This document shows positions 45,556 to 62,536 of a stretch of 64,000 nucleotides of DNA, piece after piece. The DNA is from Shinella yambaruensis. Lineage in GTDB: Bacteria; Pseudomonadota; Alphaproteobacteria; Rhizobiales; Rhizobiaceae. Location of the stretch: assembly GCF_022899355.1 (NCBI RefSeq), contig NZ_JALJCK010000002.1, positions 372,001-436,000 of the forward strand. Direction: 5' to 3'. The translations under genes and the position numbers were made by a program. The notes under the pieces are model-generated. The model searched no databases. It was given only the letters and a program-made list of their open reading frames with translations, and was not told the origin of the DNA. The number at the start of each line of letters is the position of its first letter. Position 1 is the first letter of the stretch.

Positions 45556-45569
45556 ACTAGTATACTGGT
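45556..45569 (-). promoter_or_regulatory. FadR-type operator 1 (binding-protein promoter)
   Basis: ACTAGTATACTGGT is a near-perfect 14-base palindrome. On the minus strand, TTGACA (45585-45590) lies 17 bases before CAGTAT (45562-45567), so the operator covers the -10. Confidence 0.65.
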
Positions 45570-45650
45570 TTAATAGTAGCGCGATGTCAAGCGAGGCGGC
45601 CGCGGAAAGTGATTTTCGGCAGTTGCGAACGGAAAAGCCGCTGCGGCGGA

Positions 45651-46811
45651 TCACTCGCCGCCTGCCTGAACCGGATTGGGCCGACGCTTCTCGATCGCGT
45701 ATTTCAAGAGAGCCGCGCTGCGGAAGATGCCGTGGGCGAACTTGCCGTAGGGCAATGTGAGGAAGAAGCCCATGACGAACCCGAGATGGACGGCGAGAAG
45801 CAGCGGCATTGCGGCAGTGTCTCTCCATGCCAGCAGCGCGAGCCCTGTCAGGCTCACGAAGAACAGAAGCGCTATGAAACCTCGATCCATCGTTTTCTGC
45901 GTCTCATCGGCCTGCATCGGATTACGCCGGATATTGAGCCAGAACAGCCCCGCGGGGCCGATCAGGAGGCCGATGCCGCCGGCGGTGCCGAGGAGGACCG
46001 GCAGGCTGAGGATCGGGTAGGGTGCCTCCATGGCGAACAGGTAGTGGTACAGGGTCGCGACCGACGTCGAGGCAAAGCAGAGCATGAACCCGTAGAACGT
46101 AAAATGGTGAAAGCGGCGCCGCCAGAGCGTGAACGCGTCGTCTTCATTGTTGCAGCCGTCACGGTGGCCTCCGTCGAGATACTGAAGCGTCAGGACAGCC
46201 CGGGCCGCTTCTCCTGCAGCGTTTGGAAGGGGCACGGGCTTTCCCGGCTCGGATACCTGCCTCCAGAACCGGATGACCCCGATCGCCAGCGCCAGAACAG
46301 AAAAGCCGAAGGCGGCACCAAAGAGGACGGCGAGGAGGTTGTGGGGGAAGATCACGTAGAATTGCCCCTCGAGGCCATGCACGAACAGGCTGCCCTGCAT
46401 CAGGATCGCACCGATAAGGAACGCCGCGACGCCGAGGCTGACAGCCATGGCGACGGTCAGTCCGTTGCGGCGGTAGAGCACGCCGAGGGATTTCGGGAAG
46501 GCATATTCGACATAGGTGTCGCGCCGTACCTGCGCCAGTGTCTTCGGCACGTTGACGCCGAACTCATGCGGAGGCGCGTACTGGCATGCATAGAGGCAGG
46601 CGGAGCAGTTGTGGCATAGATTGGCCAGGTAGTGCGCATCGGCCACGTTGAAGTCGAGCCGGCGTGTCATGGCTGGAAACACTGCGCAGAAGCTTTCGCA
46701 GTAGCGGCAGGCATTGCAGATATGCAGGATGCGGTCGACCTCCGCGGCGTTCGTCTCGAGTTCGCGCTCGGCATCCAATGCGAGCCTTGTCAGGTCTTCA
46801 ATTGCGGCCAT
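45651..46811 (-). CDS. tcuB: TcuB, membrane Fe-S protein for tricarballylate-type oxidation
   Basis: 386-residue CitB/TcuB-type protein. Two cysteine clusters, [11 protein letters not shown] (about 32-42) and [11 protein letters not shown] (about 66-76), predict two [4Fe-4S] clusters. Some six hydrophobic helices follow, with histidines ([18 protein letters not shown]) that may bind haem. In Salmonella TcuB reoxidises the flavin of TcuA and passes electrons to the membrane chain. It starts 15 bases after tcuA, at ATG 46811 after GGAGGG. Confidence 0.87.
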
Positions 46812-46826
46812 TTCGAACGCCCTCCA

Positions 46827-48221
46827 TTATGCCGGCCTGCCGAGCGCGGCGGCCGCGGCCCGGGTTCCGGCGATCCGCCCGAAGGCCGTGCCTATGCTCA
46901 TGCCGACCCCGGCGGTGTAGCCTTTTCCGAGCACATTGCCGGCCATCATCTCGCCGGCGACGAAGAGGTTGGAGCTCGGCTTGTTGCCGAACCGCACCGC
47001 GGCCGTGTCATCCACTTTCAGCGAAAGGTAGGTGAAGGTGATCCCCGGCCTCAGGGCATACCCGTAGAAGGGTGGCGTATCGATCGGCAGAGCCCAGTGG
47101 GTCTTTGCGGGTACGACGCCCTCCGTCCGGCAGTCGTCGAGGATCGTGTGATTGAACGTGCCCGGCCGGCAGGCTGCATTGTAGCTGTCCAGCGTGCGCA
47201 TGAAGACCTCGACCGGCACGCCGAGTCTGGTCGCCAGTTCAGGCAGGCTATTGGCTGTGATCCCCGGGAATACCGGAGGCATGAAGCGTCCGATCACCTT
47301 CCTGTCGATGATCGAATAGCCGATCTGGCCCGGTTGCTGGGCAACGAGACGTCCCCAGATGGCGTATCGTTTTGGCCAGAAGTCCTCGCCTTCATCGTAG
47401 AAGCGTTCACCATCGCGATTGACGACCACTCCGAGCGAGACGCAGTCGATGCGGGTGCAGATGCCTCCGTCATAGAGTGGCGCGCGCGCATCGATCGCGA
47501 CGCAATGGCCCTGCGACGGATCGCCGATCATGTCGGCTCCGGCCCGCATCATGTCTTTGAGGAGGACCCCCTGATTGAAGCGGGTCCCGCGGATCAGGAA
47601 ATTGTCGGCCGGCCATTCGCCGCGATCGTTGCGGCCCCAGGCCTCCCGCAGCCATTCCCGGTTCGACTCGAAGCCGCCGGCGGCCAGCACGCAGGCCCTG
47701 GCGGTGATCAGTTCTCCGCTTTCCGTGCGAGCGCCGACGAAGCGATCGCCGTCGAGCACGATCCCGGCCACCGGCGTTTCGTAGCGAACACGGACACCAA
47801 GGGTCTGGGCACTTCGATAATAGGCATTGACGAGCGCCTTGCCGCCGCCCATGAAAAATGCGTTCGTCCGGGCAACATGCAGCGCGCCCGATAGCGGCGG
47901 CTGAAAGCGCACGCCGTGGCGGCGCATCCAGTCCCGGCAATTCGAGGAGGCGCGGATAACGAGACGGGCGAGATGCTCGCTGGTCTCGCCTCCCGTCACC
48001 TTCAGCAGGTCCTGCCAGTATTCCTCTTCCGGATATGCCTCGACAAGGACGTCCTGCGGCGCGTCGTGCATGCAACGCAGGTTGCGGGTATGCTGGGAGT
48101 TGCCGCCGCGCCACTCCTTCGGCGAGGCTTCGAGCATCAGCACCGACGCGCCCGCCTCGCGCGCCATCAGCGCCGCGCACAATGCCGCATTGCCGCCTCC
48201 GATGACCAATACGTCAATCAC
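46827..48221 (-). CDS. tcuA: TcuA, FAD-dependent tricarballylate dehydrogenase-like
   Basis: 464-residue flavoprotein of the FAD_binding_2 (fumarate reductase) family: N-terminal VIDVLVIGGGNAALCAALMA, LEASPKEWRGGNSQHTRN and C-terminal NVLGKGYTAGVGMSIGTAFG. In Salmonella TcuA oxidises tricarballylate to cis-aconitate. Start GTG 48221 is best placed behind GAGGA; earlier GTG codons at 48245 and 48269 lack a site. Family members also act on other dicarboxylates, so the true substrate here is open, given that tcuC (the usual transporter) and tcuR are absent. Confidence 0.85.
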   Translation of the reverse strand: MIDVLVIGGGNAALCAALMAREAGASVLMLEASPKEWRGGNSQHTRNLRCMHDAPQDVLVEAYPEEEYWQDLLKVTGGETSEHLARLVIRASSNCRDWMRRHGVRFQPPLSGALHVARTNAFFMGGGKALVNAYYRSAQTLGVRVRYETPVAGIVLDGDRFVGARTESGELITARACVLAAGGFESNREWLREAWGRNDRGEWPADNFLIRGTRFNQGVLLKDMMRAGADMIGDPSQGHCVAIDARAPLYDGGICTRIDCVSLGVVVNRDGERFYDEGEDFWPKRYAIWGRLVAQQPGQIGYSIIDRKVIGRFMPPVFPGITANSLPELATRLGVPVEVFMRTLDSYNAACRPGTFNHTILDDCRTEGVVPAKTHWALPIDTPPFYGYALRPGITFTYLSLKVDDTAAVRFGNKPSSNLFVAGEMMAGNVLGKGYTAGVGMSIGTAFGRIAGTRAAAAALGRPA

Positions 48222-48396
48222 GATGAAATCCTCACTTCGGGTCACCCGGAACCTCCCATTCGAGGGCACGGGTCATCGGCCGCCCCGGATGTCCAAGGAA
48301 CGAGACCATTCACAGTCGGCAGTTTGAGAGGGCCCTTCCCTGGGACGTGCCTGCTCCCCGCACGGCGGAGCGGGCCGTCTGCCCGGCGGTCCCGCG
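48222..48396. other. Gap between tcuA and the fused ABC gene
   Basis: 175 bases with a GC-rich stretch and no clear promoter, and no match to the island operator. tcuAB is probably co-transcribed from the ABC gene upstream. Confidence 0.3.
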
Positions 48397-50043
48397 TCAG
48401 TCGCGCCGGTCGACCATGCGCAGGAACTGCTTCGTGCGTTCCTCTTTCGGGTTGGTCAGCACCTCGCGGGCCGGGCCGTCCTCGACGATCACGCCCTTGT
48501 CCATGAAGACCACCCGATCGGCGACGTCACGGGCAAAGTTGATTTCATGGGTCACGACGATCATCGTCATTCCTGCTTCGGCAAGGCTGCGCATGACGGC
48601 AAGGACCTCGCCGACAAGCTCCGGATCGAGTGCCGAGGTCGGTTCGTCGAACAGCATGAGCTTGGGTTCCGTGGCGAGCGCGCGGGCAATCGCAACGCGT
48701 TGCTGCTGGCCGCCGGAAAGGCGCATCGGCAAGTGGTCCGCATGCTCTTCGAGGCCGACGCCCTTCAGCAACTGCATCGCGCGTTCGCGGGCCGCCTGGG
48801 GCTTCATCCCGTAGACCTGGATCGGCGCTTCCATGATGTTCTCCAGCGCCGTCTTGTGGTCGAAGAGATCGAAGCTCTGGAAAACCATGCCGATCTTCGC
48901 ATCCGCCCGGGCCTTGGCCAGGTGCTTGGTGGGCACGAGCTTGCCGCGTTTGCGCTCGTAGCCGACATGCTTGCCTTCGACCAGGATCTCGCCGTCGTTC
49001 AGGACTTCGAGGTGATTGATCAGGCGCAGAAGCGTGCTCTTGCCGGAGCCGCTGGCGCCGAGGATGGCGACGACCTCGCCCGGATGGACCTCGAAGTCGA
49101 CGCCTTTGAGAACTTCGAGGTCACCCCTTCCGCGCAGGTGATACGCCTTGTGCACGTTCTTGCAGATGACGAAGGGCGTATCGGCCGTCTCGCGTGCGCT
49201 CCTTGACGCACTGGCCGCGAGCACCTTGATGATGGAGTTGTCGTCGGGTTTGGCGGGCGCGGGTTTCGAACTGTCGGCGGCCGTGGTTCCGGCGCCGCCT
49301 GCCGCTCCGCCGTCGTCTGCATCGACGACCTCGTAGTGCTGGGTGCGCACACCGGTGACCCAGCGCTCCCAGATGGACGGCTGTTTGCTGAGGCTGCGCA
49401 GCTCCGGATCGAGCCGGCGCTCGATGACGAGCTGGCCGAGCGATATCAGCGTCGTCGTGAAGAGATAGAGCGATGCGGCAGCGATGAAAACCGTGAAGAA
49501 GTCGAAGTTTGTCGCGACGATCTGCTGTGCGCGGAACGTCAGCTCGTTCACGAAGACGACCGAGGCGAGCGATGTTCCCTTCAGCATCGATATCGTCGCG
49601 TTGGATATCTGCGGGGTGATCGACCGGAGCGCCTGGGGAATGATGATCCTGCGCAGCGTTATGAATGGGCCCATGCCGAGCGCCGAGGCAGCCACGGACT
49701 GGTTTCGCTTCACCGACAGGAGACCGCCACGGATAAACTCCGCCGCAAAGGCCGCTTCGTTCAGGGCAAAACCGATGACCGCCGTCGTGAACGGATCCAG
49801 CCGGATTCCCAGCCGGGGCAACGCATCGAAGATGAAGATCAGCTGCAGCAGGATCGGCGTACCGCGCATGATCCAGATATACACCCACGCCACGCCGCTG
49901 ATGGCCGGATTCTTCGACATCCTCATCAATGCGAGGGCCAGGCCCAGCGCCAGGCCGCACACCATGGCAAGCGCGGTAATCTGGATAGCGATCCAAAGGC
50001 CCGTCAGCAGGTTCACGCTTGTGAGGTATTTCACGATTTCCAT
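48397..50043 (-). CDS. Fused amino-acid ABC permease and ATP-binding protein
   Basis: 548-residue single polypeptide. Residues 1-220 form a HisM/GlnP-type permease (about five helices; loop [20 protein letters not shown] at 119-138). Residues 235-285 are a Ala/Gly/Pro-rich linker. The rest is a GlnQ-type ATPase with Walker [10 protein letters not shown] (329-337), signature LSGGQQQR, and Walker [13 protein letters not shown]. Permease-ATPase fusions are uncommon in this family, where separate genes are the rule; a homodimer would make the full transporter. ATG 50043 is preceded by AAGGGA; an upstream frame to 50097 covers the operator and is unlikely. Confidence 0.9.
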
Positions 50044-50071
50044 GACATGTTCCCTTATCGTTATTAAGGAT

Positions 50072-50085
50072 ACTAGTATAACTAA
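50072..50085 (-). promoter_or_regulatory. FadR-type operator 2 (fused ABC promoter)
   Basis: ACTAGTATAACTAA resembles the other sites; read with a three-base spacer it is ACTAGT-ATA-ACTAAT. On minus, TTGACA (50092-50097) lies 16 bases from TAGTAT (50070-50075), so the site sits in the core promoter, 29 bases before the ATG. Confidence 0.55.
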
Positions 50086-50170
50086 TTTCCTTGTCAATCG
50101 GGATTATGATCGAGACATTGCGAGGTGCCGGGCATGCGCAACCCGGATGAGCGATCGAGACCCCGCAGGT

Positions 50171-51151
50171 CTAGAAGTCGACAACCACGCCCGCGCCCTT
50201 TTCCAGGGCCCGCCGGTAGACATGGCGGGCGATGACCAGATCCTGCACGCCCACGCCCGTTGACTTGAACACGGTCAACCTGTCTGCAAAGGTCCTTTGG
50301 TCGAGCTTGCCGTCCGCAAGGTCGCCGATCTCGGCGACAAAGTGATCGGCATCGTAGAGGCCCTCGGAAATGGGAATGAGATAGTCGCCGGCTTCGGCCA
50401 TAAGCGCGTCCTTGCTCTCGATGAAGATCGCGGCCGCGGCCATGGTCGCGCTGTCTACCTCTCGCTGATCCTTGCGATGCGCTCCGAGCGCGGAAACATG
50501 ACAGTTTGCGGTCAGCCATTCGCGTTTGATCACCGGATCGTGGGACGTGGTTGCCAGCGACACGAGGTTCGCGCCGCTTACCGCCTCTTCGTTCGATGCG
50601 CAGATCGTCACGGTGATGCCGGTTTTCCGCTCCACGACCCCGCGAAACCTTTCCGCAGCTTCCCGGTTCGGATCGTGGACCGTGATCCGCGACAACGGAC
50701 GGACTGCGGCCATGACTTCCGCTTCCGCCTGACCCATCGGTCCGCAGCCGAGCACCGCAAGGTGCGAAGCCTCCGGCAAGGAAAGGAATCTCGCGGCGAG
50801 CGCGGAGCAGGCAGCGGTACGATACATCCCGAGCAGGGTTCCGTGCATGACCGCCAGGAGCCGCCCTTCCGTGTCGCCGAGGGCGATGATCTGCGTCAGG
50901 TGACGGGTGCCATCCACGTCCCGGAGCGTGGGATGACTGAAACCGAGCTTTGCACTGAACAGTTCCTCACCGGAGAGATAGCAGGGCAGGCTCGCCAGAA
51001 GGCCGCCTGTCCTGCTGGAAAAAACCCGGGTCCTCAGCGGCTGCACCGCCTCGCCCCTGCTCAACGCGGCCATCCCGTCGCCAATCTCGTCGACCAGCTT
51101 GTCCAGCTCAAGGCAATCGAGCGTGGCGGCCTTGTCCAAAATCAGTACCAT
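50171..51151 (-). CDS. Ornithine cyclodeaminase-family protein of the island
   Basis: 326-residue OCD/mu-crystallin-family protein with LGFSHPTLRDVDGTRHL, MYRTAACSALAARFL and the NAD motif VLGCGPMGQAEAEVMAA. Members reduce ketimines, deaminate amino acids cyclically or dehydrogenate alanine and the like. It is eight bases behind the DAO-type oxidase gene and precedes the fused ABC gene. A role on the amino-acid part of the imported substrate is likely but not specified. Confidence 0.78.
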   Translation of the reverse strand: MVLILDKAATLDCLELDKLVDEIGDGMAALSRGEAVQPLRTRVFSSRTGGLLASLPCYLSGEELFSAKLGFSHPTLRDVDGTRHLTQIIALGDTEGRLLAVMHGTLLGMYRTAACSALAARFLSLPEASHLAVLGCGPMGQAEAEVMAAVRPLSRITVHDPNREAAERFRGVVERKTGITVTICASNEEAVSGANLVSLATTSHDPVIKREWLTANCHVSALGAHRKDQREVDSATMAAAAIFIESKDALMAEAGDYLIPISEGLYDADHFVAEIGDLADGKLDQRTFADRLTVFKSTGVGVQDLVIARHVYRRALEKGAGVVVDF

Positions 51152-51159
51152 TTGATCTC

Positions 51160-52362
51160 CTATTGAATGGGTGGCGCCACGAGATTGCCAAGATGGCCGA
51201 CACGGCTCACCGGCTCGTCGGACGCTTCGATGTCGAGTGGCCGTTCAAACCGGACGGGCGCGAATGGATCGAGGCTGACCGTCGGGGTTTCGCCGAGGAT
51301 CGCCTGCGCCAGGCTCTCGGTTACCGACGGCGCGATCGCCATGCCGTGGCCGTTGAAACCAGTCGCAATCCACAGACCGGAGACATGCTCGGCCGGTCCG
51401 ATCATGGCGCGGCCGTCGGGCGTGAGGTCGAAGAGACCGCTCCAGCTGCGCACGATATGCGCGTCCTTGAGGGCCGGCACCAGCCGGATCGTCTCCCTGG
51501 CGATCGCTTCGATCTTGCTCGGTTCGACGCGTTGCGGCGCATCCGGAGCGATGTCGCTGGCCGGGCCGAGGCCGAGCAGCAGCGTTCCGCTGGCGGTTTG
51601 ACAGAAGCTTATTCGTGGCGAGGCGCAGCGAAGGTAGGGGCCGGTTACGAAGGGCAGCTTCTCCGTCACCAGGATCTGGTGGAGCGCGAGGCTGATCGGC
51701 GTCTTGATTCCAAGCGGTTCGAGGAGGCGGACACTGTCGCCGGCCGCCGCGACGAGGACGCTCTCCGTCGCTATCCGGCCGGCACTGGTTTGAACGGCCG
51801 TAACCTTGCCGTGGTCGTGCTCGATCAGGTCCGCGGCAGTTCCGCGAAGGAAGCGGACACCGGCGAGCTTGGCTTGCCGGGCGGCCTCCCATGTGGCCAG
51901 CTGCCCGTTGACGTGCCCGTCCTGTGTCGTCAGGAAACCGGCGACGATGTCCGGCGAAATATGGGGAACGAGTTCGCGAAGGGCGGCGCCCTCGACGATA
52001 TGCGCATCGAGACCGATCGCCCTGTGGCGGTCGACTTCGATCTGGAAATCGGCGGTGAGGGTCTCGTCATAACTCACCAGCAGATTGCCGGTCACTCTGT
52101 ACTCGACCGTCGTCCGGGCGCTTTCTTCGAAGCCCTGCCAAAGGACAAGCGACCGGTTGATGAGATCGCGCTCGACGGCCTCACGCAGCTGCACACGCAC
52201 GTTTCCGCGGTTTCGGCCTGAGCCGTTATGCGCGATCTCGGCCTTTTCGACGACGCAAACCTGTTTGCCTGCACGGGCGAGGTGCAGGGCGGTCCAGCAG
52301 CCGATGATGCCACCCCCTATGACCACGAGGTCAGCGCTCTTGAGATTGGGTGAGTTCGACAT
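51160..52362 (-). CDS. DAO-type FAD-dependent oxidoreductase
   Basis: 400-residue flavoprotein of the D-amino acid oxidase/sarcosine oxidase family: ADLVVIGGGIIGCWTALHLA, QLATWEAARQAKLAG and C-terminal GLWIATGFNGHGMAIAPSV. It should oxidise the C-N bond of an amine or N-substituted amino acid and give an aldehyde or keto acid plus free amine. The next upstream gene, an aldehyde dehydrogenase, could take an aldehyde product. ATG 52362 chosen; a TTG at 52395 is an in-frame alternative. Confidence 0.82.
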   Translation of the reverse strand: MSNSPNLKSADLVVIGGGIIGCWTALHLARAGKQVCVVEKAEIAHNGSGRNRGNVRVQLREAVERDLINRSLVLWQGFEESARTTVEYRVTGNLLVSYDETLTADFQIEVDRHRAIGLDAHIVEGAALRELVPHISPDIVAGFLTTQDGHVNGQLATWEAARQAKLAGVRFLRGTAADLIEHDHGKVTAVQTSAGRIATESVLVAAAGDSVRLLEPLGIKTPISLALHQILVTEKLPFVTGPYLRCASPRISFCQTASGTLLLGLGPASDIAPDAPQRVEPSKIEAIARETIRLVPALKDAHIVRSWSGLFDLTPDGRAMIGPAEHVSGLWIATGFNGHGMAIAPSVTESLAQAILGETPTVSLDPFAPVRFERPLDIEASDEPVSRVGHLGNLVAPPIQ

Positions 52363-52446
52363 TTCCTTCTCGGTCTCCGTCGGCGCGCCATTCAAGTCAT
52401 GCGCCTGTTTGCGAGAATAGTGTTAAGAACGCCGTGCCCGCGACGG

Positions 52447-53883: not shown

Positions 53884-53940
53884 GAAGTGATTTCCTCTGG
53901 AGGTCGCCGGTGGGCCTGTCATTCCGACTTTGTATATGAT

Positions 53941-53954
53941 ACTAGTGCACTCAT
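53941..53954 (-). promoter_or_regulatory. FadR-type operator 3 (aldehyde dehydrogenase promoter)
   Basis: ACTAGTGCACTCAT. On minus, TTGCCA (53962-53967) is exactly 17 bases from TAGTAT (53939-53944), so the operator overlaps the -10 and spacer of the leftward promoter. Confidence 0.65.
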
Positions 53955-53981
53955 TAATCGCTGGCAAGTTCCAAAATTCCG

Positions 53982-54011
53982 TTGACATTACTTATATCAG
54001 TATACTAGTAA
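53982..54011 (+). promoter_or_regulatory. Rightward promoter with FadR-type operator 4
   Basis: TTGACA (53982-53987) is 18 bases from TAGTAA (54006-54011). ATCAGTATACTAGT (53996-54009), the reverse complement of ACTAGTATACTGAT, lies between and over the -10. It serves the hydantoinase-like operon. Confidence 0.65.
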
Positions 54012-54064
54012 TTTGAAAAGCCTTTAAGCCGGCCAACGGCTGTGGCGGTCCCCAGGAGCGGTTC

Positions 54065-55717
54065 ATGAGCGATGTGTTCGACCCCATTTCCCTTGAGATT
54101 TATTGGTCTCGATTGATCTCGATCGCCGACGAGTCCGCGGCTGCCCTGCTGCGTACGGCGTTCTCGACGGTGGTCCGTGAATCCAATGACTTCACCACCG
54201 TTCTCATGGACGCCGATTGCAACTGCCTCTCGGAAAACACCGCGGGCATCCCGTCCTTCGTCGGCATGTTGCCGAGCGCGGTCCGCTCGTTCCTTCAGCA
54301 TATTCCGCGCGAGGAATGGCGGCCCGGCGACTGCATCATCACCAATGATCCGGAAATCGGCTCGGGGCACCTGCCGGACATCACGATGGCCGCGCCGATC
54401 TTCTACAAGGATCGCCTGGTCGGCTTCTCGGGTTCGATCGCGCACCTGCCTGACATCGGCGGCGCCGGCTGGGCGGGGGACTGCCGCGAGCTGGTCGAGG
54501 AAGGACTTCGCCTCATGCCGGTGAAGTTCATCAGCGAGGGGCGCGAAAACACCTATGTGACCCAGCTTCTCCGTCACAATGTCCGCGCTCCCGACCAGGT
54601 CATCGGCGACATCTACGCCCAGGTCTCCGCGCAGCGGGTCTGCGCCGCCGGCGTCCGGCAGTTTCTGGAAGACACCGGCATGGACGATCTCGTCCTGCTG
54701 TCCGCCGAACTTCGCGCCCGCGCGGAAGCCGCCATGCGCAAGGCGATCGTGGCGCTGCCTGACGGCTCCTGGACATCGAGCGTGCGCGCCGACGGCTTCG
54801 ACGCCGACGAGACCTTCATCAACTGCCGGCTGACCATTCGTGGTTCGGATCTCGAGATCGATTTCGAAGGAACCTCGCCGCAGATCAATCGCGGCATCAA
54901 CTCGGTGCTCAAATACACGACGGCATACGCCACCTATCCCATCAAATGCGCCCTCGACCCGGAAAGCCCCCGCAACGAAGGCTCGTTCCAGCCGGTTTCG
55001 GTGAAGGCGCCGGTCGGTTCCATCCTCAATCCGATCTTCCCGGCACCTGTCGCCGCGCGCCAGCTGACAGGGCACCTTCTTACCGGCGCGATCTATGGAT
55101 GCCTGGCGCAGGTCGTTCCCGAGCTGGTCGTCGCGGAATCCGGCAGCGCCCCGACGCTGCGTACCGTCTTCGGTGGCCGCACGCGGGATGGCCAGGCCTT
55201 CAACCAGGTTCTGTTCGCCTCGGGTGGCCTCGGCGCCAGCAGCAGGATGGATGGCTACGGCTGCACGGCCTTCCCCTCGAACACCGGCGCCGGCAGTATC
55301 GAGGTGCTGGAAAGCGTCTCGCCCTTGCTCGTGCGCCACAAGGAGCTGGCGCAGGATTCCGGCGGCGCGGGCAGGTTCCGGGGCGGCCTGGGCCAGGACG
55401 TCGTGCTGGACATCCAGTCCGACAGCCCGGTCAATATCTCGCTCCTTTCGGACCGCCACAAATACCCGCCGCAAGGTCTGCTCGGCGGCCGACCCGGCTC
55501 GAAATCGATCGTGGCCCTGTCGGACGGGACGCGCCTGCACCCCAAGTCGCGCAGCGTCCTGCAGCCGGGCGAAACCCTGCACATTCATTTTCCGGGCGGC
55601 GGTGGCTTCGGCCCGCCGGCCGACAGAGACCCCGCCGCGATCAAGCGGGACATCGAATTTGGATACGTGTCGCAGGATGCGGCCGAGAAGCTCTATGGGG
55701 TGCGAAATGACCGCTAA
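54065..55717 (+). CDS. Hydantoinase B/oxoprolinase-type subunit
   Basis: 550-residue HyuB-family protein. N-terminal DPISLEIYWSRLISIADESA, ITNDPEIGSGHLPDI (metal-binding acid/His cluster), and FPGGGGFGPPADRDP at the C-terminus, all typical of hydantoinase B/oxoprolinase and acetone carboxylase alpha. It forms a complex with the A subunit encoded next and overlaps it by 11 bases. B before A is the reverse of many operons. Start ATG 54065. The substrate may be a lactam, hydantoin or amide, opened with ATP. Confidence 0.88.
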   Translation: MSDVFDPISLEIYWSRLISIADESAAALLRTAFSTVVRESNDFTTVLMDADCNCLSENTAGIPSFVGMLPSAVRSFLQHIPREEWRPGDCIITNDPEIGSGHLPDITMAAPIFYKDRLVGFSGSIAHLPDIGGAGWAGDCRELVEEGLRLMPVKFISEGRENTYVTQLLRHNVRAPDQVIGDIYAQVSAQRVCAAGVRQFLEDTGMDDLVLLSAELRARAEAAMRKAIVALPDGSWTSSVRADGFDADETFINCRLTIRGSDLEIDFEGTSPQINRGINSVLKYTTAYATYPIKCALDPESPRNEGSFQPVSVKAPVGSILNPIFPAPVAARQLTGHLLTGAIYGCLAQVVPELVVAESGSAPTLRTVFGGRTRDGQAFNQVLFASGGLGASSRMDGYGCTAFPSNTGAGSIEVLESVSPLLVRHKELAQDSGGAGRFRGGLGQDVVLDIQSDSPVNISLLSDRHKYPPQGLLGGRPGSKSIVALSDGTRLHPKSRSVLQPGETLHIHFPGGGGFGPPADRDPAAIKRDIEFGYVSQDAAEKLYGVRNDR

Positions 55718-57815
55718 TCTCCGTGTCAGGATCGGTGTCGACGTCGGCGGGACATTTACCGATCTCGTTCTCGTCGATGACCGTCGTGGTGTGATCTACA
55801 CCGGAAAGCAGCTCACCACGCACCAGGACCCCTCGCAGGCGATCTGCGAAGGCATCGCGCGGATCGTGCGGGAATCGGGGCTCACGATCGATCAGGTCGA
55901 TGGCATCGTCCACGGCACGACGCTGGTGACGAACACCCTGATCGAACGGAACGGATCGCGCGTCGGTCTTGTGACCACGAAGGGGTTCCGCGATGTCCTG
56001 GAGGTCGGCCACGAGATGCGCTACGACCTCTACGACCTCTTCATGGAAAAGCCGGAGCCGCTCGTCCCTCGGCCGCTTCGCCTGACCGTGACCGAACGCA
56101 TGTCGGCAAAGGGCGAGGTTCTCGAACCCCTCGACGAAGAGGAGGTCCTGGCGGCGGCGAGGCAGCTGGTCGAGGCCGGGGTCGATGCGATCGCCGTCAG
56201 CTTCCTCAATGCCTTCGCCAACCCCTCGCATGAAACGCGGGCCGCGGAACTGATCGCGGGGGCTTATCCGGACATCCCCGTCACGACGTCCGTCGGCGTC
56301 GCCCCGGAAATCCGGGAATACGAGCGGACCTGCACGGCCGCTGCCAATGCCTACGTGCTCCCGCAGATGCGCCGCTACATCAAGGTCCTGCGCCAGAAGC
56401 TTCAGGACCTCGGCTTCCGCGGAACATTGAGCGTGATGCTTTCCAACGGCGGCACGGCCGCGCTCGGCGTTGCCGAGGATGCGCCGATCCAGATGATCGA
56501 GTCCGGTCCCGCCGCCGGCGCGATATCGGGCGCCCACTACGCTGGCCTCAGCGACACCGATCATGCGGTCGCCTTCGACATGGGCGGCACGACAGCGAAG
56601 ATGTGTCTGATCGAGAAGGGCCAGCCCGAACATTCGCAGACCTTCGAAGCCGGCCGCGTTCGCCGTTTCCGACAGGGCTCCGGCATCCCGCTGAAGGTCC
56701 CGGTCATCGATCTCATCGAGATCGGCGCCGGCGGCGGCTCGATCGCGCGGCTCGACCGGATGGGCCTCCTGAAGGTCGGCCCGGACAGCGCGAGTTCCGA
56801 GCCGGGGCCGGTCTGCTATCGCAAGGGGGGAGAAAACCCGACCGTTACCGATGCGGACCTCATGCTCGGCTATCTCTCGCCCGAATACTTCCTGGGCGGG
56901 GAGCTGGAACTCGACACCGGCGCCGTCGAGGCCGCCCTGAAAAGGAAGCTCGCGGACGATGCCGGGCTGGAGACGATCGAAAGCGCCGCCGGCATCCATG
57001 CCGTCGTCAACAACAACATGGCGGCCGCCACGCGGCGCTACATCGCCGAGAAGGGCCGCGATCCCCGCAAATATACGCTGATCGCGACGGGCGGCGCCGG
57101 ACCGGTCCATGCATACGGGCTCGCCAAGGAACTCAAGATCAGCCGCCTGATCATCCCGTTCGGTGCCGGCGTCAGCTCGGCCCTTGGTTTCCTGCTTGCA
57201 GCCCCGGCGGTCAATGACGTCCGCAGCCAGATCGTCCTGCTCGATCAGGCAACGCCGGAGGTCGCGGCGGGTCTCTACGGACAGATGCGGGAAAACGCAG
57301 TCGCGCAGCTGACGGCGGCTGGTGCGAACCGGCACGAGGTGACGATGAAGTCGTCCGTCGACATTCGCTATCGGGGGCAGGGCTTCGATATCGAAGTGGA
57401 GCTTCCGGGCGATTTCCTCGAAGCGGACTTCCGCGCGGGGCTGAAGGCACGGTTCGAAGAAAAGTACGAGCTCCTGTTCGGCCGCCACATCACCGATGTG
57501 CCGATCGAGATCGTCTCCTGGCGCCTCACGGCGAGCTGCCCGCGCCCGGAAATCAAACTGCAGTTCGAGGGCCGGCAGATCGACCGGCGCGAAGCCCGCA
57601 AGGGAACGCGCCGCGTGCATTTCGGCCAGTCCGGCTTCGTCGAGGCGCAGGTCTACAACCGCTACGGCCTGACGGCCGGGACGACCTTCAAGGGACCGGC
57701 GGTGATCGAGGAGCGCGAGTCCACCGCCGTTGTCGGCCCCGACGCCACGGTCAGCGTCGATCAGCACCTGAACCTGATCGTCGACATTCAAGATACCAGA
57801 GGAGATCTCGTCTAA
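55707..57815 (+). CDS. Hydantoinase A/oxoprolinase-type ATP-dependent subunit
   Basis: 702-residue HyuA-family protein. Two ATPase-like halves: GVDVGGTFTDLVLVDD at the N-terminus with HGTTLVTNTLIERNG, and AFDMGGTTAKMCLIEKG in the second half, then GAGGGSIARLD and ATGGAGPVHAYGLA. These proteins spend ATP to hydrolyse 5-oxoproline or hydantoins or to carboxylate ketones. ATG 55707 overlaps the B subunit stop. The stop overlaps the next start by one base (TAATG), giving strict coupling. Confidence 0.88.
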   Translation: MTANLRVRIGVDVGGTFTDLVLVDDRRGVIYTGKQLTTHQDPSQAICEGIARIVRESGLTIDQVDGIVHGTTLVTNTLIERNGSRVGLVTTKGFRDVLEVGHEMRYDLYDLFMEKPEPLVPRPLRLTVTERMSAKGEVLEPLDEEEVLAAARQLVEAGVDAIAVSFLNAFANPSHETRAAELIAGAYPDIPVTTSVGVAPEIREYERTCTAAANAYVLPQMRRYIKVLRQKLQDLGFRGTLSVMLSNGGTAALGVAEDAPIQMIESGPAAGAISGAHYAGLSDTDHAVAFDMGGTTAKMCLIEKGQPEHSQTFEAGRVRRFRQGSGIPLKVPVIDLIEIGAGGGSIARLDRMGLLKVGPDSASSEPGPVCYRKGGENPTVTDADLMLGYLSPEYFLGGELELDTGAVEAALKRKLADDAGLETIESAAGIHAVVNNNMAAATRRYIAEKGRDPRKYTLIATGGAGPVHAYGLAKELKISRLIIPFGAGVSSALGFLLAAPAVNDVRSQIVLLDQATPEVAAGLYGQMRENAVAQLTAAGANRHEVTMKSSVDIRYRGQGFDIEVELPGDFLEADFRAGLKARFEEKYELLFGRHITDVPIEIVSWRLTASCPRPEIKLQFEGRQIDRREARKGTRRVHFGQSGFVEAQVYNRYGLTAGTTFKGPAVIEERESTAVVGPDATVSVDQHLNLIVDIQDTRGDLV

Positions 57816-59425
57816 TGGCTAGCACAGTCGAAGTTTTGGCCGACGCCATCAAGGAAAGCGGCACGCCCTTTATCGTCGGCCATCCGGGCGGCGAGACCGT
57901 CGAGCTGATGGATGCGGCCAGCCAGCGCGACATGCGCTATATCCTGATGAAGCAGGAGACGGCCGGCGCGATCCTCGCCGCGACATGGGGCGAGATCACC
58001 GGCAGTCCGGGCGTCTGCACGTCGACCCGCGGGCCGGGCGCCACGAACATGGTCAACGGGGTCGCCTATGCCTGGCTCGACCGCGCACCGCTCATCGCCC
58101 TCACCGATCAGTATCCGGGCGCGACCCTGGAAACCGGCCAGCGCCAGGTGATCAATCATCGGGCGATCTACGATCCGATCACCAAATGGAGCACGACGCT
58201 CTATGCGAAGAGCGCGCAGCAGCAGATCCGCCGTGCTCTGAGGACTGCCACCGCTCCGACACCGGGGCCCGTTCATATCGACGTTCCGGCGGGGGAAACG
58301 ACTGCCGAAGCCCCGGAGATGAAGTTTCCGCCGGATCTGCGGCAAAACACGCTGTCGACGATCCCCGTCGAGGAAACGCTGACGCCGGCGCTCGACATGA
58401 TCCGCCGGGCGAAGCGGCCGATCCTTCTTGCGGGTCTCGGCGTGCTGTGGGACCGGGCATCGGCCGAGCTCGTCGGCTTCGCCGAGGCACTTGGCGCACC
58501 GGTTCTGACGACGTCGAAGTGCAAGGGCGTCATTTCCGAGGACCATCCGCTCCGCGCCGGCTGCATCATCGGCGGCCTGATCGAGCGCGATCTCGTCAGC
58601 CAGGCGGATCTCATCATCACCGTCGGCCTTGACGCCGTCGAGCTTCAGCCGAAGGCGTGGCCCTACGGCACGCCGCTCCTGAGCCTTGCGAATACCCCGA
58701 CGCTCGATGCGCTCGTCCCCGCGACGCTCGAAATCCTCGGTGAGATCAATGGTCTCCTCAAGGGGCTGCGCGCCGGCATCGGCGGCCAGGGGGAATGGGG
58801 CGAGAAGGCCGCCGCCACGTTCCGCACCGCGGTCATCGACGCCCTGAACGTGCCGACCAAGGGGCTTTCGCCTCACCGCGCGATGGAAGTCGCGCGCGCA
58901 GCGCTTCCGCGCGACACGATCGCGACGTGCGATGCCGGTGCAAGCCGACTGCTCGTCGTGCAGAAGTGGGAATCCTACGGTCCCCGCGAGTTCCTGACGT
59001 CGAACGGCCTCGGTACGATGGGCTACGCGATCCCGGGCGCGCTTGCCGCGCGCCTTGCCCATCCGGGCCGCCCTGTCATTGCTTTCGCCGGCGACGGCGG
59101 TTTCCTCATGGCTGTCGGCGATCTGCACACGGCGGTGAAGGAAAAGCTTCCGATCATCGTCATGGTCTTCGACGACCGCGAGATCGCCCTGATCCGCATC
59201 AAGCAGGAACTGAAGAAGATCAAGCGGTTCGGCATCGAACTGGGCGGTTTGGACTGGGTCAGTCTCGCGCAGGGCTTTGGTGCCGATGGCGTCGTCGTCG
59301 AGACGGAAGGCCAGCTGACCGACGCCCTTCAGGCAGCGGTGAAGTCCGGCAATACGACCGTCATCGCCGTTCGCATCGATGGCTCGTGCTACGTGGATCA
59401 GTTCAACGCTCTGCGTGAGCTTTAA
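57815..59425 (+). CDS. Thiamine-diphosphate-dependent enzyme, acetolactate synthase-like
   Basis: 536-residue TPP enzyme with N-terminal Pyr domain (HPGGETVELMDA, catalytic E48 in MKQETAGA), central Rossmann-like domain and C-terminal PP domain. The cofactor motif is GDGGF (426-430) followed by FDD at 452-454; the usual GDG-x25-N asparagine is D453. Acetolactate synthase, benzoylformate or sulfopyruvate/phosphonopyruvate decarboxylase and oxalyl-CoA decarboxylase are family relatives. No regulatory subunit is nearby, so this is a catabolic decarboxylase or ligase of unknown substrate. The gene is tightly coupled to the preceding HyuA-like gene. Confidence 0.82.
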   Translation: MASTVEVLADAIKESGTPFIVGHPGGETVELMDAASQRDMRYILMKQETAGAILAATWGEITGSPGVCTSTRGPGATNMVNGVAYAWLDRAPLIALTDQYPGATLETGQRQVINHRAIYDPITKWSTTLYAKSAQQQIRRALRTATAPTPGPVHIDVPAGETTAEAPEMKFPPDLRQNTLSTIPVEETLTPALDMIRRAKRPILLAGLGVLWDRASAELVGFAEALGAPVLTTSKCKGVISEDHPLRAGCIIGGLIERDLVSQADLIITVGLDAVELQPKAWPYGTPLLSLANTPTLDALVPATLEILGEINGLLKGLRAGIGGQGEWGEKAAATFRTAVIDALNVPTKGLSPHRAMEVARAALPRDTIATCDAGASRLLVVQKWESYGPREFLTSNGLGTMGYAIPGALAARLAHPGRPVIAFAGDGGFLMAVGDLHTAVKEKLPIIVMVFDDREIALIRIKQELKKIKRFGIELGGLDWVSLAQGFGADGVVVETEGQLTDALQAAVKSGNTTVIAVRIDGSCYVDQFNALREL

Positions 59426-59436
59426 GGGGCATCGAA

Positions 59437-60222
59437 ATGCGTATGAAGGGAAAACGTGTTGTCGTCACGGGAGGCGCGCGTTCGATCGGACGCGCCTGCG
59501 CCGAACGCTTCGCCGAGGAAGGCGCGGATGTCGCCATCCTCGATGTTCTTGCCGACCGGGGCGGGACAACCGCGGCGGAGATCGCCAGGCAATACGGCGT
59601 CGATTGCCGTTTCTATGAATGCGACGTCGGCACGAAATCGTCGGTGGACAGCACCATCGACCGGGTCATCGGGGACTTGGGCGCCATCGACATCCTTTTT
59701 TCCAATGCCGGCATCACGCGCCGTGCCGACTTCCTCGAGCTCACCGAGGAAGACTGGGACGATGTCATCCGGATCAATCTGAAGTCGATGTATCTGGTCG
59801 GCCAGAAGGTCGCCAGGCATATGGTCGAGCGCGGCGGAGGGGGGGCGATCGTCAATATGTCGTCCTCCTCGGTCAGGATGACCATGCCGACGATTGCACC
59901 CTATGCCGCGTCGAAAGGGGGTATTTCGGCGCTCACGACGGCCATGTCGCTGTCGCTGGCTCCGCACGGCATCCGTGTGAACGCCGTCGGTCCGGGCACG
60001 ATCTACACCGAGCTCAACAAGGACAATCTCCTCAAGGATGTGGAGAAGCGCCGGGAAGTCCTGTCGCGCATCCCGCTGATGCGTTTTGGCGAGGGACGCG
60101 ACGTCGCCAACGTCGTGCTGTTCCTGGCCAGTGACGACGCCGGCTACATCACCGGCGAGACCCTCTACATCGACGGCGGCCGGTCCGGTCTCAACTACAC
60201 CCTTCCCGTCGAAGAGAAATAG
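59437..60222 (+). CDS. Short-chain dehydrogenase/reductase
   Basis: 261-residue classical SDR. Cofactor motif TGGARSIG (11-18), NNAG-type SNAG (89-92), catalytic Ser in MSSSSVRM (about 143), Y156 and K160 (PYAASKG), C-terminal GETLYIDGGRSG. Substrate specificity cannot be read; it probably handles a hydroxy or keto intermediate. It follows the TPP gene by 11 bases. Confidence 0.88.
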   Translation: MRMKGKRVVVTGGARSIGRACAERFAEEGADVAILDVLADRGGTTAAEIARQYGVDCRFYECDVGTKSSVDSTIDRVIGDLGAIDILFSNAGITRRADFLELTEEDWDDVIRINLKSMYLVGQKVARHMVERGGGGAIVNMSSSSVRMTMPTIAPYAASKGGISALTTAMSLSLAPHGIRVNAVGPGTIYTELNKDNLLKDVEKRREVLSRIPLMRFGEGRDVANVVLFLASDDAGYITGETLYIDGGRSGLNYTLPVEEK

Positions 60223-60234
60223 GAACCATCCGTC

Positions 60235-61149
60235 ATGTCCGACTACTCAAATCTTCTGGTCTATCTCGACGGAGAATTCGTCGCGTGGAACGACGCCAGG
60301 ATCCACGTTTTCACTCCGGCGGTCAAATACGGCGCCGCCGTGTTCGAGGGCATTCGTGGATATTGGAATGCCGACACGGAAAAGATGTATCTCTTCCGGC
60401 TCGAAGAGCATATGCGACGCCTGGAGCTCAGCCAGCGGATCATGCGCTTCGGCCGGATCGTCCCGGCTGAAACCATGATGGAGGCGACTGTCGATCTCAT
60501 TCGCAGGAATGCGTTCCGTGCGGCGGTCCACATTCGCCCGACGGTCTATGTCGCCGGCGCCGGCGAGAGCAATGCGCAGACCCCGATCGGCACGTTCATA
60601 ACGGCAATCGCGCGCGATACGCCCAAGAAGGTGGAACGTGGCGTGCGCGCTCAAATCTCGTCCTGGCAGCGCATCTCGGATAACGTCATGCCGGCGCGCG
60701 CCAAGGCGAACGGCAATTATAACAATTCCCGTTATGCCGGCCTGCAGGCCGCCAAGGACGGCTATGATGCGGCGATTTTCCTCAACAGCCGTGGCAAGCT
60801 GTCGGAAGGTCAGGCAATGTGCCTCTTCCTCGTTCGCAACGGCGTTGCGGTGACGCCCTCGGCAACGAGCGACATCCTCGAGAGCATCACGCGTGATACC
60901 GTCATTCGCCTGCTTCGCGAGAAAGGTATCGAGGTGCAGGAACGGGACGTCGATCGCAGCGAATTCTTCGATGCGAGCGAGGCGTTTTTCTGCGGGACCG
61001 GGGCCGAGATCACGCCGATCATCGATGTCGACGGCGACGCTATCGGCGCCGGCACGCCCGGCGAGCTGACCAGGGCACTGCAGGCCACGTATTTCGATCT
61101 CGCGTTCGGTCGCTCGAACCCGGATCACGCGTGGCTGACGGCGGTATGA
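60235..61149 (+). CDS. Branched-chain aminotransferase-like class IV enzyme
   Basis: 304-residue fold-type IV aminotransferase. VKYGAAVFEGIRGYWN, PLP lysine K157 (PARAKANGNYNNSR) and LSEGQAMCLFLV are typical of IlvE. In this catabolic operon it may interconvert an amino acid and a keto acid that the TPP enzyme or SDR uses, rather than serve branched-chain synthesis. It starts 12 bases after the SDR gene. Confidence 0.86.
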   Translation: MSDYSNLLVYLDGEFVAWNDARIHVFTPAVKYGAAVFEGIRGYWNADTEKMYLFRLEEHMRRLELSQRIMRFGRIVPAETMMEATVDLIRRNAFRAAVHIRPTVYVAGAGESNAQTPIGTFITAIARDTPKKVERGVRAQISSWQRISDNVMPARAKANGNYNNSRYAGLQAAKDGYDAAIFLNSRGKLSEGQAMCLFLVRNGVAVTPSATSDILESITRDTVIRLLREKGIEVQERDVDRSEFFDASEAFFCGTGAEITPIIDVDGDAIGAGTPGELTRALQATYFDLAFGRSNPDHAWLTAV

Positions 61150-61175
61150 CAGGCGGTATGGACGAGGAGGGCGCG

Positions 61176-61652
61176 ATGGATACACGGATCTTGTCGACGG
61201 TCGATGCGGTTCTCGCCGCGATCGGCAGGGAAATCGGCGTAAGCGAATGGCTGCTGATTGAGCAGTCGCGCGTCGACGCCTTCGCGGCTGTCGTCGGAGA
61301 TTTCCAATGGATCCATTGCGACCCTGCACGGGCCGCGAAGGAGAGTGCGTTCGGCGGTACGATCGCCCATGGCGCCCTCACATTGTCGCTGGTCTCGACC
61401 CTGCGCGAAGACCTGCGCGGAACGCGGATCGAGCTGAACGCGAAGATGGGCGTGCTCTACGGGTACAACAAAGTGCGTTTTGTCTCGCCCGTCCCCGTGG
61501 GGTCGAGGATCCGCCTGCGGCAGACCCTGGCCGATGCAAAACTGGTCAAGCCGGGGGTTTTCGAAATGCAGTTCAAGGAGACCGTCGAGGTCGAGGGCAA
61601 GGAGCGCCCGGCGCTCATCGTCGAGGCCATCAACCGCAAGTTCCTGGACTGA
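61176..61652 (+). CDS. MaoC-like hydratase
   Basis: 158-residue hot-dog fold protein. The hydratase motif is VVGDFQWIHCDPARAAKESA with FGGTIAHGALTLSL, as in (R)-specific enoyl-CoA hydratases and mesaconyl-CoA hydratases. ATG 61176 follows GAGGAGGG, clearly better than earlier in-frame codons. It is the last gene of the plus arm, convergent with the FadR-type gene 32 bases away. CoA-thioester hydration is expected by family, but no CoA ligase is in view. Confidence 0.84.
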   Translation: MDTRILSTVDAVLAAIGREIGVSEWLLIEQSRVDAFAAVVGDFQWIHCDPARAAKESAFGGTIAHGALTLSLVSTLREDLRGTRIELNAKMGVLYGYNKVRFVSPVPVGSRIRLRQTLADAKLVKPGVFEMQFKETVEVEGKERPALIVEAINRKFLD

Positions 61653-61684
61653 GAAGGCCGGAACGCCTCGTGATCTGCTTCGAC

Positions 61685-62434
61685 CTATCGAAGCAGGTTT
61701 CTCGTCATCTGCTCGCTCGTGGCGTCGTTTCGGAGCTTGTAGCCGGTTTGCGAGGACCGGACCGCGAACTCGCACTGATGCGCGTGATCGAGCGTTGCCT
61801 CACGAGCCGCTTCGGCATCGCCCTTCTTGATCGCATCGACGATACGCTGGTGTTCTTCCGCGACTTTCAGCGGCCGTTCGCCCACGCCCTGATAGTCCAG
61901 GCGGACGATCACCTGCCGGATCATCGTGCTGAGGAAGATCAGCATCTGGTTCTTGGTGGCGCGCGCCAGCAACACATGGAAGCGGTTTGCCTGGGTTTGG
62001 CAAAGCACGCGGTCCGTGGTGTTGGCGAGCATGATGTCGATCGATTCCTGGAGGGCGTCGATGTCTTCCTTCGTGTGCCGCTGTGTCGCCAACTCGGCTA
62101 TGATCGGCTCGATGTGTTCGAGCGTCTCGTGGACCTGGTCGATCGAGGTGTTCTGCAGCCGCATGAGCGTTGTGATCGCCGGCACGAACTTCAGCGGATC
62201 AGGCTCGCAGATCTCCGCGCCGCCGTTTCGGCCGGAGACCAGGCGGATGAGGCCTTCCGCTTCCAGCGTTCGCAAGGCCTCGCGGATGACCGCGCGGCTG
62301 AAGCCGAACTGCTCGATCAGATCCTTCTCCTGCGGCAGGCGGTCGCCGACGCGCAGCTTGCCGGCATCGACCGCCTCTCGAATCTGAGAGACGATCACCT
62401 GAGACGCTTTTCCGGGATTGGCTGAATCAAACAT
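61685..62434 (-). CDS. FadR-family (GntR) transcriptional regulator of the island
   Basis: 249-residue GntR regulator. Winged helix: GKASQVIVSQIREAVDAGKL, then FGFSRAVIREALRTLEAEGL; the all-helical FCD effector domain follows (EHIEPIIAELATQRH, ANRFHVLLARAT, DHAHQCEFAV). ATG 62434 gives the standard family length. A longer frame (ATG 62536) would put the start codon inside the operator-like site, so I prefer the shorter one, although its ribosome site AGGAAG is very close. The repeated ACTAGT-N2-ACT motifs across the island are its probable operators; carboxylic acids are common inducers. Confidence 0.85.
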   Translation of the reverse strand: MFDSANPGKASQVIVSQIREAVDAGKLRVGDRLPQEKDLIEQFGFSRAVIREALRTLEAEGLIRLVSGRNGGAEICEPDPLKFVPAITTLMRLQNTSIDQVHETLEHIEPIIAELATQRHTKEDIDALQESIDIMLANTTDRVLCQTQANRFHVLLARATKNQMLIFLSTMIRQVIVRLDYQGVGERPLKVAEEHQRIVDAIKKGDAEAAREATLDHAHQCEFAVRSSQTGYKLRNDATSEQMTRNLLR

Positions 62435-62522
62435 CTTCCTGGTCGCCGCCTGCGATGTGTCTTGCTGAGTATCCACCAGACTAAGGCCTCGCGCTGTTTC
62501 TCGATATCTGTCTATCGGGGTT

Positions 62523-62536
62523 ACTATTCTACTCAT
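62523..62536 (-). promoter_or_regulatory. FadR-type operator 5 (own gene)
   Basis: ACTATTCTACTCAT differs by one base in the core from ACTAGTGCACTCAT at 53941. On minus it carries TAGTAA, like the -10 elements of the other four promoters. This supports autoregulation. Confidence 0.5.

What the first reader, a model, noticed from the sequence alone, without database searches (positions are those of the whole stretch)
45556..62536. A five-site operator ties a 20-kb catabolic island into one regulon
Seen directly: ACTAGTATACTGGT (45556), ACTAGTATAACTAA (50072), ACTAGTGCACTCAT (53941), ACTAGTATACTGAT (54009-53996, other strand) and ACTATTCTACTCAT (62523). Each is upstream of a gene of the island. 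Four have a TTGACA or TTGCCA at 16-18 bases from a -10 of the form YAGTAW that is part of the site; the fifth is at the FadR-family gene. Known: FadR-type regulators bind short AGT-N2-ACT or GT-N-AC palindromes and often repress their own gene. Inferred: this protein represses all five promoters.
Basis: partly seen in the sequence, partly recalled or inferred. Interest (0 to 1): 0.85.

Follow-up and report, generated by a model that had tools for sequence, protein, structure and literature searches.

The report
One repressor's operators across catabolic island
A mobile cluster of bacterial degradation genes carries the same short DNA switch in front of most of its gene groups, probably read by one regulator encoded in the cluster; it is a clear, well conserved example of a familiar kind of gene control.

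Summary
All five sequences are where stated, and four promoters have the described TTGACA/TTGCCA. The regulon continues past the window: nine operator regions before nine inferred transcription units over about 32 kb. The motif was incomplete. The unit is a GTRYAC palindrome, usually with a second, often degenerate box exactly 8 bp away (GTRYAC-TR-GTRYAC); ACTAGT is the junction. Such operators precede the same genes in two diverged islands, Rhizobiales isolate AFS073149 (regulator 95% identical) and an Antarctobacter plasmid (80%), although their letters vary. The FCD/GntR protein is the only regulator found inside these islands, and a conserved block lies upstream of its gene in each. Most likely it is a local repressor covering -10 boxes, relieved by a pathway metabolite. 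Binding and repression were not tested. Similar regulators are known: Agrobacterium Atu1419 and E. coli NanR. This is a new regulon of a known kind; the 8-bp box grammar is its most interesting feature.

The parts
44684..45529 (-). SBP1, amino-acid-type ABC substrate-binding protein
   Evidence: NCBIfam matches below cut-off; RefSeq name in the near-identical WSC3-e plasmid
45560..45573 (.). operator O1 (GTATAC-TG-GTTTAA), over the -10 CAGTAT of SBP1
   Evidence: 21.2 bits with the AFS+ANT matrix; promoter
45651..46811 (-). TcuB-type membrane electron-transfer protein
   Evidence: NCBIfam above cut-off
46827..48224 (-). TcuA-type FAD dehydrogenase (5' end approximate: frame start used)
   Evidence: NCBIfam above cut-off on the longer ORF 46827-48269
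48397..50043 (-). ABC permease/ATPase fusion
   Evidence: NCBIfam matches below cut-off on the longer ORF; RefSeq name in WSC3-e
50068..50081 (.). operator O2 (TTATAC-TA-GTATCC on the gene strand), over the -10 TAGTAT
   Evidence: 25.3 bits; TTGACA-16-TAGTAT
50171..51151 (-). ornithine cyclodeaminase-family enzyme
   Evidence: (below cut-off)
51160..52362 (-). FAD amine/amino-acid oxidoreductase (sarcosine-oxidase-beta-like)
   Evidence: (below cut-off)
52447..53883 (-). aldehyde dehydrogenase (start at 53883 preferred over 53988)
   Evidence: (below cut-off); Antarctobacter match begins at residue 36 of the long ORF
53937..53950 (.). operator O3 (GTGCAC-TA-GTATCA on the ALDH strand), over the -10 TAGTAT
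   Evidence: 22.2 bits; TTGCCA-17-TAGTAT
53992..54005 (.). operator O4 (TTATAT-CA-GTATAC), over the HyuB promoter
   Evidence: 17.9 bits; TTGACA-18-TAGTAA
54065..55717 (+). HyuB/CapB-like subunit of an ATP-dependent lactamase/hydantoinase family
   Evidence: NF050157 7.6e-70, below its cut-off
55707..57815 (+). HyuA/CapA-like subunit
   Evidence: NF050156 2.9e-160, below its cut-off
57815..59425 (+). thiamine-diphosphate enzyme, acetolactate-synthase-like
   Evidence: (below cut-off)
59437..60222 (+). short-chain dehydrogenase
   Evidence: Pfam above cut-off
60235..61149 (+). class IV (branched-chain-type) aminotransferase
   Evidence: above cut-off
61131..61652 (+). MaoC-family hydratase
   Evidence: RefSeq name in WSC3-e
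61685..62476 (-). FCD/GntR regulator; likely start GTG at 62476 (annotated ATG at 62434)
   Evidence: Pfam GntR + FCD above cut-off; upstream reading frame similar in own and AFS, Antarctobacter start annotated nearby
62519..62532 (.). operator O5 before the regulator gene (GTAGAA-TA-GTAACC), weak
   Evidence: 9.6 bits; block conserved in three lineages
62571..64000 (-). FAD oxidoreductase (sarcosine-oxidase-alpha-like), runs to C22:436025, just past the window end
   Evidence: (below cut-off)

Best explanation
A self-contained, horizontally spread catabolic island of about 32 kb is controlled by its own FCD/GntR regulator. The regulator recognises GTRYAC palindromes arranged in an 8-bp register, usually two per operator, upstream of each inferred transcription unit and, in at least four of the nine, over the -10 box. 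With no inducer it blocks RNA polymerase at these promoters, its own included; a substrate or intermediate binding the FCD domain releases it, so transporters, lactamase/hydantoinase-like enzymes, amino-acid-processing enzymes and the beta-oxidation block switch on together. Shown here: the sites, their clustering, their conservation at orthologous promoters, and their overlap with promoter-like sequences. Inferred: that this protein is the reader of the sites, that it represses, cooperative binding of two dimers, the unit boundaries, and the inducer.
For: Genome-wide clustering. A matrix trained only on the other two lineages scores 8 distinct own sites at 10 bits or more in 59.7 kb (9 rows, two being registers of one site), against 3 in 799,320 background positions, a sample that on purpose included the six non-island places. 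De novo search of AFS and ANT intergenic DNA alone gives WAnnAGTATACTnnTW, score 287.8 against 67-73 in ten shuffled sets run alike (earlier run 287.3 against 65-109). 29 exact GTRYAC in 6,317 intergenic nt of the three islands against 5.6 expected; 21 of 29 have a second box (4/6 or better) at 8 bp, at most 8 of 29 at any other offset from 4 to 30. Good promoters overlap the operators of ABC, ALDH and HyuB in three lineages and of SBP1 in the own one. The regulator gene travels with the island at 95% and 80% identity, has no match at 1e-45 in 393 other family genomes, and a conserved block precedes it. Precedent: Atu1419, an FCD repressor of an Agrobacterium degradation region, binds ATGTATACAT over -10 boxes (PMC7797058, passages).
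Against: No binding or expression data. The fadR site scores only 9.6 bits, a level met by 3-5 of 799,320 background positions. O5, O6, O7 and O9 have no convincing -35/-10 pair. Two gaps long enough for a promoter have no site: before own TcuA (172 nt) and before own amidase (212 nt). AFS and ANT training sites were chosen with a pattern first seen in the own island, so the matrix test is not fully independent. In the de novo search of the own island alone the best solution was an AT-rich pattern, not this motif. Column-permuted matrices reached up to 6 hits where the real one gave 9 (mean 0.92 of 200). One unlinked site scores 17.5 bits (C3:21670). Part of the ACTAGTAT conservation may reflect the -10 box itself.
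Confidence: 0.85

Rival explanations
1. The operators are real but are read by another regulator of the host, and the FCD protein controls something else.
For: Binding cannot be shown by sequence; an FCD/GntR paralogue exists in the own genome (C2:39940, 33% identity).
Confidence: 0.08
2. The regulator is an activator or dual regulator rather than a repressor.
For: CitO, an FCD protein, activates with its ligand (PMC4746285, start of abstract and passages). Some sites (O5, O6, O7, O9) lack a clear promoter on which to judge.
Against: At SBP1, ABC, ALDH and HyuB the box lies over the -10 of an otherwise good promoter, where a bound protein should block.
Confidence: 0.1
3. The shared strings are only -10 boxes of a common AT-rich promoter style, not operators.
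For: TAGTAT is part of both; the own-only de novo search gave an AT-rich pattern.
Against: The 8-bp offset preference of GTRYAC boxes, strong boxes away from any clear -10 (w73166), and clustering in 28 kb of a 6.87-Mb genome.
Confidence: 0.04

Closest known systems
Atu1419 of Agrobacterium fabrum (FCD/GntR, VanR subgroup; PMC7797058, passages seen)
   Same: FCD repressor of a species-specific degradation region; GTATAC-centred 10-bp palindrome over -10 boxes; several sites; autoregulation.
   Different: Its palindromes lie 109-190 bp apart and can be bridged by a tetramer; here boxes sit 8 bp apart within one operator, and the core is AGTRYACT.
NanR of E. coli (FCD/GntR; PMC8012715, abstract and passages seen)
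   Same: Repeated hexamer boxes in close arrangement in one operator; repression.
   Different: NanR boxes are GGTATA repeats, three per operator, and cooperativity needs a 32-residue N-terminal extension; here the boxes are palindromic, usually two, and about 25 residues precede the GntR domain if the GTG start is right. Sequence relation is distant (PDB match 6on4, E 3.9e-9).
Caprolactamase CapAB of Pseudomonas jessenii (search listing only, PMC8453981, PMC6061476)
   Same: Best NCBIfam matches of HyuA/HyuB.
   Different: Scores far below the curated cut-offs (534.9 and 235.8 bits against 1000); the substrate here is unknown.

Membership tests
FCD/GntR transcription regulators | N-terminal GntR winged helix | tested here: met
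   PF00392 1.1e-16, above cut-off
FCD/GntR transcription regulators | C-terminal FCD effector domain | tested here: met
   PF07729 8.4e-20, above cut-off
FCD/GntR transcription regulators | metal ligands of the FCD domain (Asp and His; ligand set partly recalled) | tested here: inconclusive
   His of RFH, EEH and DHAH present; the usual Asp four before the first His is Ala/Ser in the three orthologues (alignment, sequences); read by eye
FCD/GntR transcription regulators | GT-Nx-AC palindromic operator | tested here: met
   GTRYAC boxes
FCD/GntR transcription regulators | the protein binds these sites | not testable with these tools
   needs a binding assay
NanR-like cooperative repeat operators | two or more boxes at fixed close spacing | tested here: met
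   8-bp offset in 21 of 29 boxes, 16 of 24 after merging exact pairs
NanR-like cooperative repeat operators | N-terminal extension mediating dimer contacts | tested here: inconclusive
   about 25 residues before the GntR domain if the GTG start is used; role unknown
Atu1419-type tetrameric FCD repressors | tetramer, looping between distant palindromes | not testable with these tools
   The two operators in the ALDH/HyuB gap are 55, 122 and 84 bp apart in own, AFS and ANT (positions), with no evident shared helical phase

The most novel reading that the evidence does not exclude
The regulator reads a modular operator: GTRYAC boxes at multiples of 8 bp (two adjacent, or two 16 bp apart with the middle box lost, as before ACAD2 in both own and AFS), bound by dimers that touch each other. 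The combination of boxes sets the strength of each promoter, and the regulon controls an undescribed pathway for a lactam- or hydantoin-like nitrogen compound.
Probability: 0.3. Interest if true: 0.55.

Novelty: new member of a known kind. Interest (0 to 1): 0.4.

Why it matters
It gives a testable regulon map for an uncharacterised mobile degradation island shared by Rhizobiales and a marine Roseobacteraceae plasmid. The three diverged copies supply ready-made operator variants for working out how FCD/GntR proteins read closely phased boxes, and the regulon suggests which genes belong to the pathway, including a second substrate-binding protein and a beta-oxidation block beyond the window.

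Tried and rejected
Relaxed tandem pattern GTRYACTRGTRYAC at 2 mismatches genome-wide: 62 + 64 matches (list cut at the first 100 rows), dominated by background, so useless alone; its only exact own place is in the island. Regulator search beyond the three lineages: in 397 order genomes 35 have a match at 1e-20, the own one included, and all others are 28-37% identical; in 394 family genomes none at 1e-45 but the own; in genome contigs 9 loci, one of them close (95%), the rest 26-33%. Literature: no paper with all of 'FCD domain', 'GntR', 'operator', 'hydantoinase'; three operator strings gave 18 papers, 15 listed, none of which looks to be about this operator by title and start of abstract. 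Papers on Antarctobacter heliothermus (8, 5 listed) and a second acesulfame paper (PMC10413263, listing) were not opened. OplR, a lactam sensor, was looked for in a listing only. Looping between the paired operators of the ALDH/HyuB gap was set aside because their spacings show no shared helical phase. The C28:192847 background hit (12.4 bits) was listed but not pursued.

Errors of mine: coordinates printed are one too low; most proteins downstream of the window were therefore out of frame and were redone; the own regulator translation is out of frame, so its N-terminus is taken; searches took the own 2-hydroxyacid dehydrogenase to start at C22:436620 (its ATG is at 436519) and the regulator to start later than now thought, so one search's distance of 131 nt for that gene should be about 30, and the box statistics (30 boxes, 21 with a partner at 8 bp) were recomputed with corrected limits. 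In one search the real set had 150 starts and the shuffled sets 40; one search repeats it with equal starts for AFS+ANT only.
Full report
Location. The window is G000:C22:372001-436000 of a 6.87-Mb, 34-contig genome. Window coordinate = C22 coordinate - 372000. The same island, nearly identical, is on plasmid paSHIWSC3 of Shinella sp. WSC3-e. None of seven same-genus genomes listed has the regulator at 1e-45, so the island is accessory.

Check of the observation. The five strings are present at the stated coordinates. The reversed control pattern had 90 matches, so the cluster is not explained by a common word. Of 151 family genomes 28 (own included) have an exact match; no other genome has two within 400 kb of one contig. 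In the window alone the pattern at 2 mismatches is only twofold over shuffles.

Beyond the window. I fetched the DNA to the right. Further sites lie at w64341 (before the 2Fe-2S subunit), w64475 (before a 2-hydroxyacid dehydrogenase), w73027 (before two acyl-CoA dehydrogenases) and w73166 (before a second substrate-binding protein). From gene order I infer nine transcription units: ALDH-FAD oxidoreductase-cyclodeaminase; ABC-TcuA-TcuB; SBP1; HyuB-HyuA-ThDP enzyme-SDR-aminotransferase-MaoC; the regulator; 2Fe-2S-FAD oxidoreductase; 2-hydroxyacid dehydrogenase; acyl-CoA dehydrogenases-SDR-thiolase-OB protein-CoA ligase; SBP2-hydratases (and perhaps amidase). Each has an operator region before it. 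Unit boundaries are inferred, not measured; the gaps before own TcuA (172 nt) and own amidase (212 nt) have no site, so if those are separate units the count is nine of eleven.

Redefining the motif. Two diverged islands exist: in the Rhizobiales isolate AFS073149 (G771:C27; regulator 95% identical) and on plasmid pSMS3-1 of Antarctobacter heliothermus SMS3 (regulator 80%, HyuB 87%). AFS keeps the gene order (read on the other strand) but has no SBP1 orthologue in the 60 kb read; Antarctobacter has blocks moved or missing, with no match to TcuA, TcuB or the acyl-CoA dehydrogenases in its 41.6 kb. In both, sites of the form GTRYAC-TR-GTRYAC (up to 3 mismatches) precede ABC, ALDH, HyuB and SBP2, and in AFS also 2HADH; boxes also precede AFS 2Fe-2S and ACAD2. 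Exact GTRYACTRGTRYAC occurs at one place in the own genome (in the island), two in G771 (both on the island contig C27) and two in the Antarctobacter plasmid (both in the island).

Statistics. Exact GTRYAC occurs 29 times in 6,317 nt of intergenic DNA of the three islands; 300 shuffles give a mean of 5.6 and a maximum of 13. Taking these 29 without regard to neighbours, 21 have a second box of at least 4/6 at 8 bp, while no other offset from 4 to 30 exceeds 8 of 29; after merging exact pairs into one site it is 16 of 24 (a first run with slightly wrong gene limits gave 21 of 30). An 18-bp matrix trained on 13 AFS and ANT sites scored 9 own positions at 10 bits or more and none of 399,660 background positions. 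With one more training site and 799,320 background positions from 40 stretches, which include the six non-island places, 3 background positions reach 10 bits, the best 17.5; the own island has 9 rows (8 distinct sites) at 10 or more, and the regulator's own site 9.6. Because those training sites were chosen with a pattern first seen in the own island, I also ran a de novo search on AFS and ANT alone; it returned WAnnAGTATACTnnTW (287.3 against 65-109 in six shuffled sets; 287.8 against 67-73 in ten shuffled sets with equal starts). On the own island alone it returned an AT-rich pattern instead. Matrices with permuted columns gave a mean of 0.92 and at most 6 hits in 200 trials against 9.

The regulator. 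It has GntR and FCD domains. An alignment of the DNA upstream of the gene in the three lineages shows a conserved block GTNNAA-TA-GTANCC in otherwise poorly conserved DNA, so autoregulation is likely although the own site is weak. The upstream reading frame VDTQQDTSQAATRK (own) and VDSQLETSQAVATK (AFS) is similar, and the Antarctobacter gene is annotated to start at about the same place, which points to a GTG start at 62476 rather than the ATG at 62434. The segment QEKDLIEQFGFSRAVIREALRTLEAEGLI differs by at most one residue among the three proteins. No other regulator is annotated inside the WSC3-e or Antarctobacter island (the plasmid gene table is incomplete), and the mapped genes of the own and AFS islands leave no intergenic stretch over 300 nt.

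Mechanism. At ABC, ALDH and HyuB in the three lineages, and SBP1 in the own one, the boxes lie on or beside the -10 of a TTGACA/TTGCCA promoter. Steric repression with release by a pathway metabolite is the simplest reading. Two boxes 8 bp apart suggest two dimers in contact, as three NanR dimers on (GGTATA)3 (PMC8012715, abstract and passages; the exact NanR spacing was not seen, and one search found no such string). ACAD2 sites in own and AFS have two perfect boxes 16 bp apart, the same register with the middle box lost. In one search, 24 of 26 sites have two or more boxes of 4/6, but most of those sites were chosen with the tandem pattern or matrix; the unbiased figure is that.

What the pathway might be. 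HyuA/HyuB match caprolactamase subunits best, far below cut-off; one acyl-CoA dehydrogenase resembles the pimeloyl-CoA type, below cut-off. With the transaminase, ThDP enzyme, ALDH and CoA-ligase/thiolase block this suggests opening of a lactam- or hydantoin-like ring, loss of nitrogen and beta-oxidation. This is inference; the substrate is unknown.

Comparison. Atu1419 of Agrobacterium (PMC7797058, passages) is the nearest described case that I saw: FCD repressor, degradation region, GTATAC palindromes over -10 boxes, autoregulation. The present regulon is the same kind, with a different, closely phased operator. I found no paper describing it, and the main text of the 2024 Shinella acesulfame paper has neither 'hydantoin' nor 'GntR' (PMC11500405, term search and passages); the library is limited, so this does not prove absence.

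Noticed in passing
G000:C3:21670 (L085 11670): An unlinked 17.5-bit match (holding ACTATTCCACTCAT, very like the site before the regulator) lies upstream of an ORF that looks like a membrane glucose dehydrogenase (named by eye, not searched); either chance overlap with a -10 box or an unlinked regulon member.
   Followed up: partly
L059-L061 (G771:C27:72737-73635): In AFS073149 the two acyl-CoA dehydrogenase genes are reduced to stretches matching the first half of ACAD2 and a late part of ACAD1, so an internal deletion seems to have removed most of both.
   Followed up: no
window 53883-53988: The RefSeq-style ALDH start (513 aa) would put the operator and promoter inside the coding region; the start at 53883 fits the Antarctobacter protein and a GAGG ribosome-binding sequence better.
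   Followed up: partly
L058 679-8911 (left of the island in WSC3-e; in the window it lies left of about 43 kb): An ectoine uptake and breakdown cluster (ehuABCD, eutABC, doeAB as annotated) lies directly beside the island.
   Followed up: no
window 61685-62476: The FCD domain has Ala/Ser where many members have the metal-binding Asp, while three His remain; the effector site may be atypical.
   Followed up: no
L057 11483 and 13334: Two more strong operators in Antarctobacter: one 275 nt upstream of the amidase, one between an alpha/beta hydrolase and an EamA transporter gene; possible extra regulon members there.
   Followed up: no
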